Shown here in pieces: positions 3,027 through 48,145 of a stretch of 64,000 bases of DNA. The notes under the pieces were generated by a model that saw only the letters and a program-made list of their open reading frames with translations, did not search any database and was not told the DNA's origin. The first letter of the stretch is position 1; every line of letters begins with the position of its first letter. This DNA comes from Bradyrhizobium embrapense (lineage in GTDB: Bacteria; Pseudomonadota; Alphaproteobacteria; Rhizobiales; Xanthobacteraceae), in NCBI RefSeq assembly GCF_001189235.2, contig NZ_LFIP02000002.1, forward strand, positions 411 to 64,410, read 5' to 3'. A program made the translations under genes and the position numbers.

Positions 3027-3837
3027 CAATCAATTCCTTTATCGGGGTCGTTCTTTGGACGTGATGTAGGAACGGCCAGGCTTCTTCCCAAGAGTGCGGC
3101 GCACATGCCTCACAATCAGTTGTACCGGCCGTGACGTCCGTCACGGTGTTCGAGCCGCGAATCGCAATCGTGTCGGACGGCTTGTTTGCACACCATGAGT
3201 TGGATGAGATCGTGGCGTTTTGCATGCGCCTCATGCGCTCGTGATGATGCGCAGTGATGTTGTGATTAACGGGCAGGCGAGAAGCCGTTTTTGCCTTTAT
3301 TTATAGGCTTTCTTGGTTGGTTAAGGTGCGTGCGTTAAGCGTTTCTTCACGCACGCGCCGCGCATCGGCAGAGATTCGCGCCGTGGCGAGCGATGACACC
3401 GCTGTCATTGGCGGGATCTGTTAGCGGACTTGCTGCAGCCTAAACGAAGCCGTCATTGCGAGGAAGGAAGCGACGAAGCAATCCATCTCTCTTCATGCGA
3501 CGTGATGGATGATTTTACTTCACACGCAATCGGGCAAAGAAGAATCCACTCACTGTTCTCCTCGGCGAGACTGGGCTTGCCGTCACCGACTTCGCAGACG
3601 CTTGCGCGCCCCGCGCGAGGACACCCGCCAAGAGGGCGTCAGGACCGCCCGCTTTCGCCATCCGCGATGTAGGCGCGCTCGTGTCGCGCACCTCTCAAAG
3701 GAGGCGGACGCGCCGCTTGTACTCGGGGGTGGCACTCAGGAAAGAGGAATATTTTCTCTGCGAGGACTGGACAGAGTGCTTCACGTTGAAAAAGATTGAT
3801 AATTCGACCAGCAAGTCGCGGTCACGGCGAGATCGGT
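3027..3837. other. Non-coding stretch with repeats, left edge of the defence island
   Basis: About 800 bp with no convincing gene. It holds an inverted repeat at 3129-3146 (arms CCGTGACG), a GTGCGTGCG hairpin near 3329-3360, the dispersed element GTCATTGCGAGGAAGGAAGC starting near 3452, and a long stretch at about 3560-3720 that I recognise as recurring between genes in Bradyrhizobium genomes. The short open frames here have no family features. Base composition turns AT-richer towards the Argonaute gene, so the island boundary probably lies in here. Confidence 0.5.
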
Positions 3838-5355
3838 TCAGATGTAATAGCGAAACGGGAGTGGCGCCTCTTGGTTCATTGGCGCAGCTGTCAAGACCTC
3901 GCCGACTGCGTCGGCAAACCTGAGCGTGACGGGGAGGCCGTCGGCAAAGAGGCAGGAGTTAAAGTTCACTTTAGTGAGTCCGAGGACATCTTTGAGTACC
4001 TCGTCCAGGTCCGCTTCACCTCTGCACACCTCGACCAATAGCGGGTTGGGAACCTCACGCCCGGGATAAGTATCGAGTTGAGGAATATATCCGGTAGTCC
4101 AGAGCAGAGCTCGATTCCTTGAAAGGCGATAACAGCTGCCTCTAATGACAGGCAGGCTTCCAGGCCCAAATAGCTTCATTTCGTTCGAACGAATGATTCG
4201 AACCCCCACCAAGTTTACGTGGCTAGGTACGCCGGATCTAAAGCCGTCCCATTCCTCATTGCTAAATCGAGTCTTGCCGTGAATAAAAAGCTCTCGCGGT
4301 TCGCGCTTGTGTTCTTGCACGTATGAATCGAACAAGCGACTTATCAAGTTCTTCGCTTCGTCGCGCGGGAGATGAAACTCTCTTGTTTGACTCGAATACC
4401 AAGGCCCCATAGCGCCTTTGAAAACTAAGCCATCGCCAGAATCGAGAAACATCTGAGCACCGCAACAGGCATTGCCTTTTGTGGGATCGGCCGTGTTCAT
4501 CTTGAAGACTAGGCCAATATAGCAAACGCCATCCCTAACGTTGGCAAGTTTCCAGGGGCGTCCGCCACTCTTAAAGAAAGTAGTTGTTCCCAGATTCCAT
4601 GCCACGGTTGCGGGGTCTTGAAGTCTTCGTCGATGCAGATCCTCATTTGAAGATCCACCGGAGAGCGTGCTTTCTCTAACAACTTGGATGACTGCGCGGG
4701 ATCGCACGAGCCGCGCCTTTAGTTGATGATGGAAGTTCAACTCATATCGATAGACCTCGGCTGCATCCATTTCTTCGGAAAACAGTGATGGCTCTCGAAA
4801 CAATCTGCGGGCGACGCGGGGGCCAAGGGAAGGACGGGAGTAGATTGCTTCTGATCGCGACACGCGGGACAAAGGTCGACCCAGCCGCCAAACTTCGTCC
4901 GGTACGACTACAAACCAGATGTCTACTTGAGAGTCGTCTTCACGGAGATGCCTTTTTATCGGTCGCTCGAACAGTGAAACGGTCTCGTAGATTGCTTGAT
5001 ATCGATCCGATTTCCGAATTGTATTTGCGACGTCTGCAGAAGAGACTGCAATTTCTACCGCTGGCTTGTTCGACCAACGCGTGCGGAACGCTGCCTCGAA
5101 GCCAGGAAAAGCAAACTGATGAGCGGAGCCTTCTGTGATCGCCGGTATAAATCGGTTCGCGCTATCGAGCCAATCTCGGAGGATGGATAATCCACTCGGG
5201 GTTCCGATCGCACCAAGGCGAATCGCTGGAGGCTTGCGATCTGCGATCGGCCCAAACAGAAATAGCCCATTTCTGGGATCCTCAATCTGCTGTTGATATC
5301 CGAACTCGAGCATCGGCTCTGGTAGAATAGTTATGCTTCGCTCGCCGATTGTCAT
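3838..5355 (-). CDS. Short prokaryotic Argonaute (MID-PIWI), SPARTA subunit
   Basis: 505 residues, the size of short pAgos, which lack N and PAZ domains. Seen: the opening LPEPMLEFGYQQQIEDPRNG with LFLFGP typical of the family; a MID 5'-end-binding region at about 200-232 with YELNFHHQLKAR and IQVVREST; and PIWI motifs TVAWNLGTTTFFKSGGRPW (250-268), VCYIGLVFK (277-285), LFIHGKTRF and LTKVNFNS (460-467). At the usual first PIWI aspartate position the sequence reads GLVF, so slicing activity is probably lost, as expected for short pAgos. In known SPARTA systems this subunit binds a guide RNA, recognises target DNA and switches on its TIR partner. Its ATG overlaps the TIR-APAZ stop (ATGA), implying coupled translation and a heterodimer. 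Confidence 0.9.
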   Translation of the reverse strand: MTIGERSITILPEPMLEFGYQQQIEDPRNGLFLFGPIADRKPPAIRLGAIGTPSGLSILRDWLDSANRFIPAITEGSAHQFAFPGFEAAFRTRWSNKPAVEIAVSSADVANTIRKSDRYQAIYETVSLFERPIKRHLREDDSQVDIWFVVVPDEVWRLGRPLSRVSRSEAIYSRPSLGPRVARRLFREPSLFSEEMDAAEVYRYELNFHHQLKARLVRSRAVIQVVRESTLSGGSSNEDLHRRRLQDPATVAWNLGTTTFFKSGGRPWKLANVRDGVCYIGLVFKMNTADPTKGNACCGAQMFLDSGDGLVFKGAMGPWYSSQTREFHLPRDEAKNLISRLFDSYVQEHKREPRELFIHGKTRFSNEEWDGFRSGVPSHVNLVGVRIIRSNEMKLFGPGSLPVIRGSCYRLSRNRALLWTTGYIPQLDTYPGREVPNPLLVEVCRGEADLDEVLKDVLGLTKVNFNSCLFADGLPVTLRFADAVGEVLTAAPMNQEAPLPFRYYI

Positions 5356-7280
5356 GGTCCATCATCCTCGGTCTCGTCGACCCATGCCTCCTGCATATCA
5401 TCGATGTCGTCTAGCTCATCGCTATCAAGCTCATCCTTCTCCGTTATGTCATCTGCTCCAGAAGGCGCGGACAACGATGCGGGCGACTCTAGCGACATGA
5501 GTGTAGGTGCAATCAAAATGCCGTGCTGTCCGTCTATAGGTAGTTTCTCATTCATGCTCGTATTGAGCCATGAAACAAACGCGATGAGCAAATCTCGCCA
5601 GCGATCGTTCCACCAACTCTTGCAAAAGCGTCGCCGAAGCAGGTGCATTCGTTCTTTGCTTGCAACGGGTGTTCTGCCGTCAGCTGTAAAAATGACGTGT
5701 GGTCGCAATACGAAATGCTGAGCGATTCCGACCGAAGGACGGCTTTCAACGGCAAAATGCCAGAACACCTTTCTTCGTTCGCTCCAGCCAACCAGCGACT
5801 TCCTACGTCGTTTTCCCGCCTCATCAATGTACTGAACTTTGTTTTGCTCAAGAAAGTGCGCTGGCATGTACCACGCATTGCCCCCAGCGGCCGTCGCGAA
5901 GGCAATGAGACCTTGATCCATCATCGCAAAGTCCCACGTCTGTCGAAGCAAGCTGGAAACGATCTTGCGAGCTTCGACCCCGCGCATACCGGGTAAGTCT
6001 GCCGTCTTGCCTCGCAGAAACTCCTCGATTGGTATTGCGTATTCTTCTTTAAACGAGATCTCGCTAGAGATGGAGCGATGAATCTCAGGTGCTTCAGAGA
6101 AGGATCCAACTAGTCTGTGATACCTGAAGCTTGGGACTCTGAGATTTGCCACGGCTCCTTGGATTTTTTCAAGCGGGAGGCTTATCGAGAAAAGCCTGAC
6201 GTGGCTGGGTAGTTGCGTGATTGGCAGCCAGTTACTTATGACTCGCTCAGGTGTTGCGACCAAGCGGCCTGTATTTCCCAGCTGAGATCTGATCCATCGA
6301 TTGATCGCGGAGACCTTCGGCCCTTCGGCTCGCGGTACCCGATCCTTCTCCAAAACAGAGGCGATCGCTTGCAGCCCAGTCGCCCAGTTAGCGCTAAAGT
6401 CCACAATGTTTTTGCGCCCAAGATTCGCCCGTACCTCGGAAAATGGTAAGTCATCGAGCCTGACCGGGAGAACGAAACGACGGAATGAATTCGCGCGTTC
6501 GATACGCACTGCTAGGTCAATTTCGTCCAACACACCAGGCTTATGCTGCGCGGACTTTGAAAGGACGACGATGACCTTTGCGGCCTCGCTCCTAATTGTT
6601 CGCTCGATGTCATCCCAGAAGAGCTCACCTCCGTCTAAGTTGGATATGTCAGCCCACACATCGTATCCGAGCAGAGATAGCTGCTGTGAAAGCCACGTCG
6701 CAAAGGCATTATCCTGCGGGTTCGCATGACTGATGAATATTACGCGTCTCTCTAGCTGAGGCGGCGACTCGATAGTGGGAACGCGAAGCACGTCCCATGG
6801 CTGAGTCAATCCGGGCAAGGCTTCGAGTAGAGACGAGATGTAATCCTCCGCCAATTGATCGCTATCAACTAGGAAAGCTAAGGGGCCCTCAATAGGGGCG
6901 TCACCTCGCGAGCTCAGGATTCTATCGGCCATTTCTCGAGGCGCTTGCTGGCTCATTTTGCCAGAAACGTCGAAGTACTGCGTGCCGCTTGAAGTGAAAA
7001 GGGCGAACACTCTTCGACGATTCAAGGAGCCGAGGTCAAACCTAGGAACTTTCCGAATGTCAATGACGGCTCTCGGACGCGAGCTGGAGATAGCAGTTGC
7101 AAAATCCGCCTCGGTTGTTTGGTCAACACCTATAAAGATTGCAAGTGATGTGTTTTCGCTAGCGAAGAGCGAATTCTGCCACCCGTGTCGAGCAAAGCTA
7201 TCGCGTGTCAGTTCGTTGCGTGGAGAAGTCGGTGTCACCAGACGCAAGAAGTTCGCTTTGGGAGGCTTTTGATCTGGCAT
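5352..7280 (-). CDS. TIR-APAZ protein with extra N-terminal domain, SPARTA NADase subunit
   Basis: 642 residues; characterised TIR-APAZ proteins are about 450. Residues 178-315 form a TIR domain: RRVIFISHANPQDNAFATWL, GYDVWADISNL, WDDIERTIR, VIVVLSKS and LDEIDLAV, with Glu253 the likely NADase glutamate. Residues about 320-600 match the APAZ region that stands in for the missing Argonaute lobes. The last 36 residues are strongly acidic. Residues 1-175 are additional and carry VIDIRKVPR and TQYFDVSG, resembling a DUF488-like fold; this is inference. In known SPARTA systems target recognition makes TIR domains assemble and consume NAD(P), killing or arresting the invaded cell. Start ATG shares one base with the deaminase stop (TAATG). 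Confidence 0.88.
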   Translation of the reverse strand: MPDQKPPKANFLRLVTPTSPRNELTRDSFARHGWQNSLFASENTSLAIFIGVDQTTEADFATAISSSRPRAVIDIRKVPRFDLGSLNRRRVFALFTSSGTQYFDVSGKMSQQAPREMADRILSSRGDAPIEGPLAFLVDSDQLAEDYISSLLEALPGLTQPWDVLRVPTIESPPQLERRVIFISHANPQDNAFATWLSQQLSLLGYDVWADISNLDGGELFWDDIERTIRSEAAKVIVVLSKSAQHKPGVLDEIDLAVRIERANSFRRFVLPVRLDDLPFSEVRANLGRKNIVDFSANWATGLQAIASVLEKDRVPRAEGPKVSAINRWIRSQLGNTGRLVATPERVISNWLPITQLPSHVRLFSISLPLEKIQGAVANLRVPSFRYHRLVGSFSEAPEIHRSISSEISFKEEYAIPIEEFLRGKTADLPGMRGVEARKIVSSLLRQTWDFAMMDQGLIAFATAAGGNAWYMPAHFLEQNKVQYIDEAGKRRRKSLVGWSERRKVFWHFAVESRPSVGIAQHFVLRPHVIFTADGRTPVASKERMHLLRRRFCKSWWNDRWRDLLIAFVSWLNTSMNEKLPIDGQHGILIAPTLMSLESPASLSAPSGADDITEKDELDSDELDDIDDMQEAWVDETEDDGP

Positions 7281-8875
7281 TACTTCGCTTTTGCTAACGC
7301 CGCTTCTAGTTCCACATAGCTAACACGGTGCAGGTGCCAAGGAGATCCCCAATCGGGGCTGCCGATCTTAAAGTCGCCTGAGGTTGGGTCTTTAAGATCG
7401 CGGTCTTTAAGGAAAGCTCTTTTGTATAGGCGCGGAGCAACTCCAGTGAATGCTCGGAACAGAACCTTGTGATTGCCACCGCGGCTAGGTTCTATCCAGC
7501 CCTTCGCGTTTACAGTGATTGCATCGGCGTGGAGGGCTAGCGCCTGGCTTTTTGGGTATGGCTCGATGTACTGGACCTCGTCTATGCCGGCCGCGACGAT
7601 TCCTCGCGCGCAATAGTGACACGGGAACGTAGTGACAAAAAGGCGAGTCCCGACCGTCGTGGTGCCCTTTCGCGCGGCGGTGAAAACCGCATCCATCTCG
7701 GCATGGACGGCTCGGCTAAATTCTAGAAGGTCGCCAACCCGGCTCGCGCGTAGTTCGAGTTTCAACCGAGCTCTGCGTATCGCATCCAGGCTCTTCAATT
7801 CTGGAATGTCGTCGATGAGGTCATCGATAATCTTATTTTGCTCTCGCGTGTTGCTGCAGAACTTTCCCAGCTTCTGGAATACACATCGATGATCTTCGGT
7901 CTCGTGCAGGAATGATTCGCCATAAACGCCGCCACCGGGACGAGGGACTTCATTTGTGCCTGTCGCGATCACGTTGCCCGACTTGTCGAGAAGCGCTGCT
8001 CCAACTTGCCTCGATAGGCAGGAACTCTGCATTGCGGCGCCGTAAGCGTCATGCATGGCTGTCTCTGAAACAGTGGGGCGGACAACCTCGGCGGCGGTCA
8101 TGATTTTAATTAGGCGCGATAGGGAGTCATTGATGTCCCAATCGGGATTTGGTTCGCCGTCCTCGAATTGGTCGATCGTATTATCCACGAAGAAGTCTGC
8201 CATATGGAACGCGTCGGAAACGCGTTGACCATGTTTTTCCGCTGCGCGAGCGTCTCTAGCCATAAAGGCTGCGGCGTCCTCCATGCCAGCATTTCGATAT
8301 TTTTTTACAATACGGTTCTGTCTCACGTTTGCTTCACAAACCACGCCAACCAGGACAAACGCATCTTGGTAGACTTTGCGAAGTAGCTCCACTTCCGCAG
8401 GGTGCCTTATTGAATCGAGGACGTAAGCTCGTCGAGTGCCATCAGGGCGAACCGGATCTTCGCCGGGACTCTTGATGCCCAAGCGAGATGCGCGAGTTAG
8501 GCGAATTGCTTCGATAAGGCTCCGTGCGACGATCGCGTGATCTCCAGAAGACCGCATCTGATCTCCTAGATCTTGATATGCTACGGTCGTCTTTAGGTCA
8601 TTCGCTGGTGTCGTTGGAAGTGGGTGATCAGTCTTTCTCGCCCATTCTTCGATCATCTTTCTCGCTTTGAGTACCTCGACGTCAAACTTGCCGCCTGGCA
8701 AAGCGTCGCTCTCAAGTAGCCCTCTGAGCGTTGTAGCAATCTCGCTTGTTCCGGAGCCAACGTAGCCAACAACTGCGAAGACGACTTCGTTGGTTGCATT
8801 CTCTTCGATGTGTGCTTTCGCAGTCTTTCGATTTTCTGAGCTAAGTGATGCGACCGCAACTGGCTTGTTGGCCAT
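7280..8875 (-). CDS. Anti-phage-type dCTP deaminase (P-loop plus deaminase fusion)
   Basis: 531 residues. The N-terminal half is a P-loop kinase-like domain with GYVGSGTSE at 37-45. The C-terminal half is a zinc deaminase with HAE at 391-393 (ligand and proton shuttle) and PCHYC at 418-422 (cysteine ligands). This architecture matches defence deaminases of the DCD/AvcD type, which convert dCTP (and dCMP) to the uracil form during infection and starve phage DNA synthesis. It is the first gene of a three-gene leftward operon; its stop overlaps the TIR-APAZ start. The lead region is AT-rich with only a weak ribosome site. A plain dCMP deaminase is unlikely given the length and the fused P-loop. 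Confidence 0.87.
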   Translation of the reverse strand: MANKPVAVASLSSENRKTAKAHIEENATNEVVFAVVGYVGSGTSEIATTLRGLLESDALPGGKFDVEVLKARKMIEEWARKTDHPLPTTPANDLKTTVAYQDLGDQMRSSGDHAIVARSLIEAIRLTRASRLGIKSPGEDPVRPDGTRRAYVLDSIRHPAEVELLRKVYQDAFVLVGVVCEANVRQNRIVKKYRNAGMEDAAAFMARDARAAEKHGQRVSDAFHMADFFVDNTIDQFEDGEPNPDWDINDSLSRLIKIMTAAEVVRPTVSETAMHDAYGAAMQSSCLSRQVGAALLDKSGNVIATGTNEVPRPGGGVYGESFLHETEDHRCVFQKLGKFCSNTREQNKIIDDLIDDIPELKSLDAIRRARLKLELRASRVGDLLEFSRAVHAEMDAVFTAARKGTTTVGTRLFVTTFPCHYCARGIVAAGIDEVQYIEPYPKSQALALHADAITVNAKGWIEPSRGGNHKVLFRAFTGVAPRLYKRAFLKDRDLKDPTSGDFKIGSPDWGSPWHLHRVSYVELEAALAKAK

Positions 8876-9010
8876 ATTTTATGATCCAATGTCCTGAAAT
8901 TAAACGAGTCTCGAATCTGTGCTGCGATGTTACCTTTGATTGTCTAGGAAGTCCCTTTATACGTTTGGGTTGTCTTCGCGCTGCTCGTTCAGCACCTAAA
9001 CGATTAGTCA
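8876..9010 (-). promoter_or_regulatory. Leader/promoter region of the defence operon
   Basis: 135 bp between the deaminase ATG and the rpmB terminator, markedly AT-rich. Reading leftward, a TATAAA at 8956-8961 could be a -10 element about 80 bp before the start, but no good -35 stands at the right distance. A TTGACT further upstream is not well spaced either. I saw no AvcI-like partner RNA, though such RNAs are hard to see by eye. Confidence 0.3.
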
Positions 9011-9044
9011 AAACAAAAACGGCCGGGTCATCGACCCGGCCGTT
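9011..9044 (-). terminator. Rho-independent terminator of rpmB
   Basis: A 12-bp perfect stem (AACGGCCGGGTC paired with GACCCGGCCGTT, 9018-9044) followed, reading leftward, by a T-rich run. It lies about 40 bp past the rpmB stop. It separates rpmB from the defence operon, which runs in the same direction. Confidence 0.85.
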
Positions 9045-9082
9045 CAAAACTCTTCCCGCGAATTCCGCTTGCGCAGTCTCGC

Positions 9083-9391
9083 TCAGCTCGCCTTCTTCAC
9101 CGGGGCCGGCTTGCCGACCTTCTTCTCGATCGCGCGCTTCAGGTCGAGGGCGCGGGGCGAGAGCACGTCGGCCTTGGCCTTGAGCAGATAGGCGTCGAGG
9201 CCGCCATTGTGGTCGACGCTCTTCAGCGCGTTGGTCGAGACGCGCAGGCGCACGTTGCGGCCGAGCGCGTCCGAGATGAAGGTCACGTTGGCCAGGTTCG
9301 GCAGGAAGCGCCGCTTGGTCTTGATGTTGGAGTGGCTCACCTTGTGGCCCGTCTGGGGGCCCTTGGCCGTCAGTTCGCAGCGCCGGGACAT
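9083..9391 (-). CDS. rpmB: 50S ribosomal protein L28
   Basis: 102 residues, the length of alphaproteobacterial L28. Opening [20 protein letters not shown] and the central [10 protein letters not shown] are diagnostic. It is a structural protein of the large ribosomal subunit. It has a strong housekeeping promoter 95 bp upstream and its own hairpin terminator downstream, so it is a single-gene unit. The alphaproteobacterial C-terminal extension ([13 protein letters not shown]) is present. It marks the return to conserved chromosome at the right edge of the defence island. Confidence 0.97.
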
Positions 9392-48068: not shown

Positions 48069-48145
48069 GGTCCCGTAGCTCAGCCGGATAGAGCGACGGT
48101 TTCCTAAACCGTAGGTCGGAAGTTCGAGTCTTCCCGGGATCGCCA
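48069..48145 (+). tRNA. tRNA-Arg (anticodon CCT)
   Basis: 77 nt cloverleaf: acceptor GGTCCCG paired with CGGGATC (one G-T pair), D-arm GCTC/GAGC, anticodon stem ACGGT/ACCGT around TTCCTAA, T-arm GGAAG/CTTCC with TTCGAGT, discriminator G and encoded CCA. It decodes AGG. A T-rich patch follows. No integrase or attachment repeat was seen next to it. Confidence 0.97.

What the first reader, a model, noticed from the sequence alone, without database searches (positions are those of the whole stretch)
3838..8875. Three-gene defence operon joining a dCTP deaminase to a SPARTA-type Argonaute/TIR system
Seen: a leftward cluster in which the deaminase stop and TIR-APAZ start share one base (TAATG) and the TIR-APAZ stop and Argonaute start overlap (ATGA). 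The deaminase has a P-loop (residues 37-45) plus HAE and PCHYC, the TIR-APAZ has the TIR motifs and Glu253, and the Argonaute has MID and PIWI motifs. Known: SPARTA systems use guide-directed DNA recognition to trigger TIR NAD(P) loss, and DCD/AvcD deaminases deplete dCTP during phage infection. Inference: translational coupling makes one module that can strike both NAD and nucleotide pools, possibly with the deaminase as a third subunit or a parallel early response. I do not recall this coupling being described.
Basis: partly seen in the sequence, partly recalled or inferred. Interest (0 to 1): 0.93.

Follow-up and report, generated by a model that had tools for sequence, protein, structure and literature searches.

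The report
Argonaute alarm wired to dCTP destroyer
A bacterial gene cassette puts an anti-phage-type dCTP deaminase gene directly before an Argonaute/TIR defence pair, and the TIR protein carries at its front a domain that in other bacteria is a separate gene sitting right behind the same kind of deaminase; this domain likely ties the two together, so that one detector of foreign DNA would starve the infected cell of both a DNA building block and NAD.

Summary
The cassette (3838-8875, minus strand) encodes an NF041025 anti-phage dCTP deaminase, a TIR-APAZ protein and a short pAgo, with TAATG and ATGA junctions. Seven of seven other testable X-TIR-APAZ loci have the deaminase directly upstream; 0 of 28 plain SPARTA loci do. 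X also occurs as a small separate gene directly behind the same deaminase clade, with no SPARTA gene seen beside it, in 14 further loci. X is related to DUF488 (profile-profile 92-96%), is under purifying selection and marks one deaminase clade with a nested fused clade. The 5.46 kb that hold the three genes are absent from two sister genomes. Most likely X is the deaminase's partner, and its fusion to TIR-APAZ wires dCTP depletion to SPARTA's guide-directed alarm. Physical contact, joint triggering and enzyme activities are untested. My paper searches listed no description of either arrangement. New variant of a known kind, of high interest.

The parts
7280..8875 (-). anti-phage-type dCTP deaminase, 531 aa (HAE 391-393, PCHYC 418-422)
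   Evidence: NF041025 433 bits, cut-off 400; PADLOC dCTPase; motifs
7283..7423 (-). C-terminal tail of the deaminase (residues 485-531), alike in X-linked deaminases; candidate contact with X (inferred)
   Evidence: tails read to the stop codon in 50 deaminases
7278..7282 (-). TAATG junction, deaminase stop / TIR-APAZ start
   Evidence: sequence
5352..7280 (-). X-TIR-APAZ protein, 642 aa
6771..7280 (-). domain X (residues 1 to about 170), DUF488-related, elsewhere a separate gene behind the deaminase
6351..6749 (-). TIR domain (residues 178-310) with catalytic Glu253
   Evidence: Pfam TIR_2; alignment to solved SPARTA
5352..6320 (-). APAZ part (residues 321-642, acidic C-terminus included)
   Evidence: PADLOC PNTD1-PNTD2 model; solved SPARTA
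5352..5355 (-). ATGA junction, TIR-APAZ stop / pAgo start
   Evidence: sequence
3838..5355 (-). short pAgo, 505 aa
3551..9010 (.). stretch absent from two sister genomes (about 188 bp there instead)
9017..9045 (-). terminator-like hairpin after the upstream gene (9083-9391, looks like rpmB, name recalled); the cassette then has its own 141-nt leader
   Evidence: terminator-like sites in the region are no more frequent than in shuffles

Best explanation
The cassette encodes an anti-phage-type dCTP deaminase, a TIR-APAZ protein whose N-terminal domain X occurs elsewhere as a separate gene right behind the same deaminase clade, and a short Argonaute; X is likely the deaminase's own partner subunit, and its fusion to TIR-APAZ would put the deaminase under the control of SPARTA's guide-directed DNA alarm. 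Shown from sequence: the three overlapping genes; the X domain; that X lay directly behind a deaminase in every locus read; that X exists both fused to TIR-APAZ and free; that both forms are under purifying selection; that the stretch is absent as a whole from two sister genomes. Inferred: X binds the deaminase, perhaps through the deaminase's C-terminal tail, and holds it quiet or in place. Inferred from solved SPARTA: target recognition by pAgo and guide makes X-TIR-APAZ oligomerise, which would switch on NAD(P) hydrolysis and at the same time free or activate the deaminase, so that the infected cell loses NAD and dCTP together. In the free form X would answer to some other, unknown trigger.
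For: X and the deaminase: 7 of 7 X-TIR-APAZ loci against 0 of 28 plain SPARTA loci. Copies of X found without using the deaminase as query: the window, seven fused and seven free, all 15 directly behind a deaminase. Deaminase-based searches added seven more free copies. In protein lists 22 of 93 TIR proteins share a contig length with one of the 120 best deaminases, jittered mean 0.69 and maximum 4; all 22 carry X. One X-linked deaminase clade (99/94) with a nested fused clade (89/96). Nearest start codons lie -14 to +15 bases from the deaminase stop, mostly -4, -1 or +1, except L142. Invariant residues shared by fused and free X. dN/dS of X 0.077, 0.099, 0.117. Shared deaminase tail in 18 of 20 X-linked rows. 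Absent as a whole from two sister genomes. Catalytic Glu of the TIR kept.
Against: No physical contact, transcript or activity was tested. Single-gene anti-phage deaminases without X are the larger part of the family here. X in L197 and L200 is divergent, and their deaminases lack the tail; one X-less deaminase, L249, has a partly similar tail start. The pAgo tree needs two changes for the fused group, with long branches meeting, and the fused deaminase clade is not fully supported. One deaminase beside a fused X (L031) is split in two frames. The fold of X gave no confident match. Contexts of most metagenomic X proteins were not seen.
Confidence: 0.6

Rival explanations
1. Two independent effectors share one transcript. 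The deaminase works alone, like single-gene anti-phage deaminases, SPARTA works alone, and coupling only sets dosage; X is a structural or oligomerisation domain of TIR-APAZ.
For: X-less deaminases without a SPARTA neighbour are common; one genome (G673) has a plain SPARTA and an X-less deaminase about 600 kb apart.
Against: X also exists free, behind the deaminase, with no TIR-APAZ seen, so it is not just a TIR-APAZ part. Plain SPARTA never had the deaminase in 28 testable loci.
Confidence: 0.2
2. X is an enzyme of the deaminase pathway (for example one that acts on the deaminase product) or an immunity protein against deaminase toxicity; in the fused form SPARTA only carries it along, without triggering the deaminase.
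For: X has invariant Asp, Arg, Arg and Tyr residues and a DUF488 relation, so a pocket or catalysis is possible; the fixed neighbour is the deaminase.
Against: No enzymatic family is recognised and no confident fold match. It does not explain why X was fused to a guide-directed effector and kept so in several genera.
Confidence: 0.15
3. Mere neighbours in a defence hot spot: the three genes were brought together by general clustering of defence genes, without functional link.
For: Defence genes cluster in general (established knowledge); two free deaminase-X pairs lie beside a multi-ubiquitin / ThiF locus.
Against: Order, strand and overlapping or touching codons are kept; the association is specific to X-bearing TIR-APAZ; the stretch missing from sister genomes holds these three genes and no other long gene.
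Confidence: 0.05

Closest known systems
SPARTA (short pAgo + TIR-APAZ; PDB 8fex, 8ifk, 8j8h and others)
   Same: homologous TIR-APAZ and pAgo over their whole known length, same order, ATGA overlap, catalytic Glu kept
   Different: extra N-terminal domain X on TIR-APAZ and a dCTP deaminase gene directly upstream; neither in the 28 plain loci compared
Anti-phage dCTP deaminase / AvcD (NCBIfam NF041025; AvcID of PMC10511110)
   Same: above the NF041025 cut-off; zinc motifs; lysine-less P-loop as in the other deaminases aligned
   Different: a separate clade with protein partner X; the 141-nt leader shows no excess RNA structure (z 0.34), whereas AvcD is held by the RNA AvcI, minimum about 171 nt (PMC10511110, passages)
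DUF488 (PF04343)
   Same: profile-profile probability 92-96% (E 2e-9 to 6e-7) over 57-94 columns, with the D-x-R motif and a following Tyr aligned; two controls gave 0.1-0.2%
   Different: none of 7 X sequences reaches the Pfam cut-off (best E 0.25); the neighbours of the DUF488 genes were not examined
Clover (CloA dGTPase + CloB regulator, PMC12265719; abstract seen)
   Same: works like it in logic: a nucleotide-depleting effector with a dedicated regulatory partner gene
   Different: the effector is a deaminase and X shows no nucleotidyltransferase match; no Argonaute there

Membership tests
SPARTA | short pAgo homologous to solved SPARTA pAgos | tested here: met
   E 2e-131 to 8fex_B, residues 8-505
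SPARTA | TIR-APAZ protein encoded directly upstream of pAgo | tested here: met
   E 9e-59 over residues 178-628; ATGA overlap
SPARTA | catalytic TIR glutamate (Glu77 of the solved protein) | tested here: met
   Glu253 aligns with it; E77A is the catalytic mutant in PMC10474274 (passage)
SPARTA | guide-RNA/target-DNA triggered NAD(P)ase | not testable with these tools
   needs biochemistry
Anti-phage dCTP deaminase (NF041025) | NF041025 score above curated cut-off | tested here: met
   433 bits against 400
Anti-phage dCTP deaminase (NF041025) | zinc-binding HAE and PCxxC | tested here: met
   391-393 and 418-422
Anti-phage dCTP deaminase (NF041025) | dCTP/dCMP deamination during infection | not testable with these tools
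   needs biochemistry
AvcID type III toxin-antitoxin | structured antitoxin RNA upstream of the deaminase gene | tested here: inconclusive
   leader 8876-9016 folds no better than shuffles (z 0.34); no Rfam match there; only one leader was folded
DUF488 (PF04343), for domain X | Pfam gathering score | tested here: not met
   12.4 bits at best against 22.2, in 1 of 7 sequences; X is therefore called DUF488-related, not a member
DUF488 (PF04343), for domain X | profile-profile similarity | tested here: met
   probability 92-96%, controls 0.1-0.2%
Clover | dGTPase effector with nucleotidyltransferase partner | tested here: not met
   the effector is a deaminase; X has no nucleotidyltransferase match in Pfam

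The most novel reading that the evidence does not exclude
There is an undescribed two-gene dCTP-deaminase defence system with a dedicated DUF488-like control protein X; in some bacteria X was transplanted onto TIR-APAZ, which made a three-subunit Argonaute machine that, once a guide finds invader DNA, destroys NAD and dCTP at the same time.
Probability: 0.5. Interest if true: 0.9.

Novelty: new variant of a known kind. Interest (0 to 1): 0.8.

Why it matters
If right, it is the first case known to me of a guide-directed Argonaute alarm wired to a second, unrelated metabolic effector, through an adaptor domain borrowed from that effector's own partner gene. How anti-phage dCTP deaminases other than AvcID are kept in check would become directly testable: X is the obvious candidate. 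It would add a third component to short-pAgo systems and give a recognisable tag (X) for finding more coupled systems.

Tried and rejected

Chance was rejected. Simple defence-island stacking was disfavoured. A start-codon artefact for the N-terminal extension was rejected because 84 of 93 listed proteins, the window's own included, carry it.

The deaminase tail: most X-less rows had been cut at the end of their local match, so the comparison was repeated with tails read to the stop codon: 18 of 20 X-linked rows share it (all but L197 and L200); the 30 X-less rows have other tails, L249 with a partly similar start.

A deaminase-APAZ chimera protein (P0119) is not taken as evidence of contact: no X was found in it and it may be a deletion or an assembly error. 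Synonymous sites are saturated for window/L035 and L037/L060, so dN/dS was read only from L031/L042, L187/L188 and L189/L190; the deaminase value of L031/L042 is meaningless because L031's deaminase is split.

Rows dropped: of 42 SPARTA loci listed, three had no TIR hit and four of the remaining 39 had under 2.2 kb upstream. L002-L013 carry too little upstream sequence and were not in that list. L202, with an internal stop, was left out of 20 DUF488 loci. L089, L143, L144 and L160 were not counted again: they lie on contigs with the lengths and matches of L036 and L035. L190 was left out of the deaminase tree as a fragment, and L031 as split. The chance model used contig lengths under 60 kb. 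Genome scans scored only a few candidates per genome and can miss copies.

Full report
WHAT IS THERE. The window lies in a genome of 8.27 Mb. Its genus is probably Bradyrhizobium: a same-genus genome, G332, holds X-TIR-APAZ on a contig of 16,972 bases, the length of the Bradyrhizobium sp. sGM-13 contig found by name; this is inferred. On the minus strand, 8875 to 3838, lie three ORFs that overlap by one and four bases. They encode an anti-phage dCTP deaminase (NF041025, 433 bits against a cut-off of 400), a TIR-APAZ protein (PADLOC E 7e-137) and a short pAgo (E 2e-131 to the pAgo of PDB 8fex). The deaminase has HAE and PCHYC. Its P-loop-like stretch GYVGSGTS has no lysine at the Walker position, nor do any of the 42 of 50 aligned deaminases with a residue there. 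TIR Glu253 aligns with Glu77, named as the catalytic mutant in PMC10474274 (passages seen).

THE HIDDEN PART. Solved TIR-APAZ proteins match only from residue 178. Residues 1 to about 170 form a separate domain, X. It is found in 84 of the 93 listed proteins of the TIR-APAZ search, the window's own included. Modelled alone it reaches mean pLDDT 83, and the full-length model has a low-confidence stretch at 172-174 between X and TIR. X has no Pfam or PADLOC match above noise, but profile-profile comparison links it to DUF488 (92-96% against 0.1-0.2% for two controls). DUF488 was chosen because of a motif resemblance, and apart from the controls it was the only family compared.

X AND THE DEAMINASE GO TOGETHER. 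Of 39 SPARTA-type loci with a TIR hit, 35 had at least 2.2 kb upstream. All 7 with X have the deaminase directly upstream: Rhizobium gallicum plasmid L031 (deaminase split in two frames), Bradyrhizobium L035, MAGs L036 and L047, Sphingopyxis MAG L037, Neorhizobium L042, Sphingomonas L060. None of the 28 without X has one anywhere in the fetched stretch (Fisher 1.5e-7, loci not independent). In the genus, 2 of 195 genomes have X-TIR-APAZ, both with the deaminase; seven others match over TIR and APAZ only (one with a stop inside), and none of these seven has a full deaminase match. The other near-full-length deaminases of the genus share 33-40% identity and lie in other genomes. In the protein lists 22 of 93 TIR proteins share a contig length with one of the 120 best deaminases; jittered lengths gave a mean of 0.69 and a maximum of 4 in 2,000 rounds, and all 22 carry X.

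X AS A SEPARATE GENE. Scans with TIR-APAZ/X profiles found frames of 176-227 codons that are X alone: in three genomes among 385 of the class (L140, L141, L142) and four copies in three genomes among 398 of the phylum (L187-L190). All seven lie directly behind a deaminase on the same strand; in L188 and L190 the deaminase is cut by the contig end. Deaminase-based searches added two divergent cases (L197, L200), two named plasmids (Rhizobium sp. CIAT894 L242, Pseudosulfitobacter pseudonitzschiae L243) and three viral contigs (L246-L248). That makes 14 free copies. The start codon nearest the deaminase stop lies -14 to +15 bases from it, most often -4, -1 or +1; for L142 the nearest is 70 bases inside the deaminase gene.

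SPECIFICITY AND HISTORY. Of 16 genomes among the 385 with a deaminase match below E 1e-30, 7 have X: all 5 at 50% identity or more, and 2 of the 11 at 42% or less. In viral contigs X follows 3 of 3 deaminases at 55% or more and 0 of 9 at 42% or less. Of 43 plasmid records with a deaminase, the three best by identity have X (one fused, two free); two others read have none, and 38 were not read. No convincing coupled small gene follows the X-less deaminases in 19 loci, though a few short ORFs overlap their ends. On the deaminase tree (34 rows) the X-linked deaminases form one clade (99/94) and the fused ones a nested clade (89/96). The pAgo tree (45 rows) clusters the fused ones but needs two changes, with long branches meeting. 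A C-terminal deaminase tail is shared by 18 of 20 X-linked rows (not L197, L200); 30 X-less rows have other tails, L249 with a partly similar start. X is under purifying selection in both forms (dN/dS 0.077 fused, 0.099 and 0.117 free).

PRESENT OR ABSENT AS A WHOLE. In two same-genus genomes (G304, G299) both flanks are found and about 188 bp stand where the window has 3551-9010. Whether the window gained the stretch or the sisters lost it is not shown. In the other ten genus loci compared the left flank did not align well enough to tell.

HOW IT LIKELY WORKS. X is the predicted partner of the deaminase. By fusion, TIR-APAZ carries that partner, so deaminase, X-TIR-APAZ and pAgo would form one assembly. 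Known SPARTA tetramerises on target DNA (PMC10474274, passages seen); the same change would switch on the NADase and release or activate the deaminase. The sign of X (inhibitor, anchor or sensor) is open; I favour an inhibitory anchor.

IS IT KNOWN? The 2018 pAgo survey (PMC6299218) and the 2009 one (PMC2743648) do not contain 'deaminase' in their main text (find); supplements were not read. Nine full-text searches listed no paper that, from its title and the start of its abstract, describes a deaminase coupled to a short pAgo or a DUF488-like partner of the deaminase. Most listed papers were not opened; the library lacks most subscription journals and holds no bioRxiv set, so absence in print is not shown.

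Noticed in passing
L042:9857-13321 (Neorhizobium huautlense): X, TIR, APAZ and pAgo read as one open frame: a natural single-chain fusion of the whole SPARTA pair, behind the deaminase.
   Followed up: partly
L031:4279-5896 (Rhizobium gallicum pRGM101a): The deaminase beside X-TIR-APAZ is split into two overlapping frames; whether it is inactive is not known.
   Followed up: no
L242:1-1354 and L243:6558-8851: Both free deaminase-X pairs on named plasmids lie near a Multi_ubiq / Prok-E2_E gene and a ThiF gene.
   Followed up: partly
L040:11404-15438: A Rhodothermales MAG has about 4 kb between TIR-APAZ and its pAgo, which elsewhere overlap.
   Followed up: no
G000:C14:111587-112402 (own genome, outside the window): A second, distant short-pAgo-like match in the same genome (30% identity, frame of 471 aa).
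   Followed up: no
P0119 (641 aa, longest contig 4,621 bases): A metagenomic deaminase whose end reads as APAZ C-terminus, a deletion chimera or assembly error.
   Followed up: no
G673:C1 (L149, L195): One genome holds a plain SPARTA and an X-less deaminase about 600 kb apart, that is, both systems without coupling.
   Followed up: no
window 48069-48145, plus strand: A tRNA-Arg (anticodon cct), the only tRNA in the window and far from the cassette.
   Followed up: no
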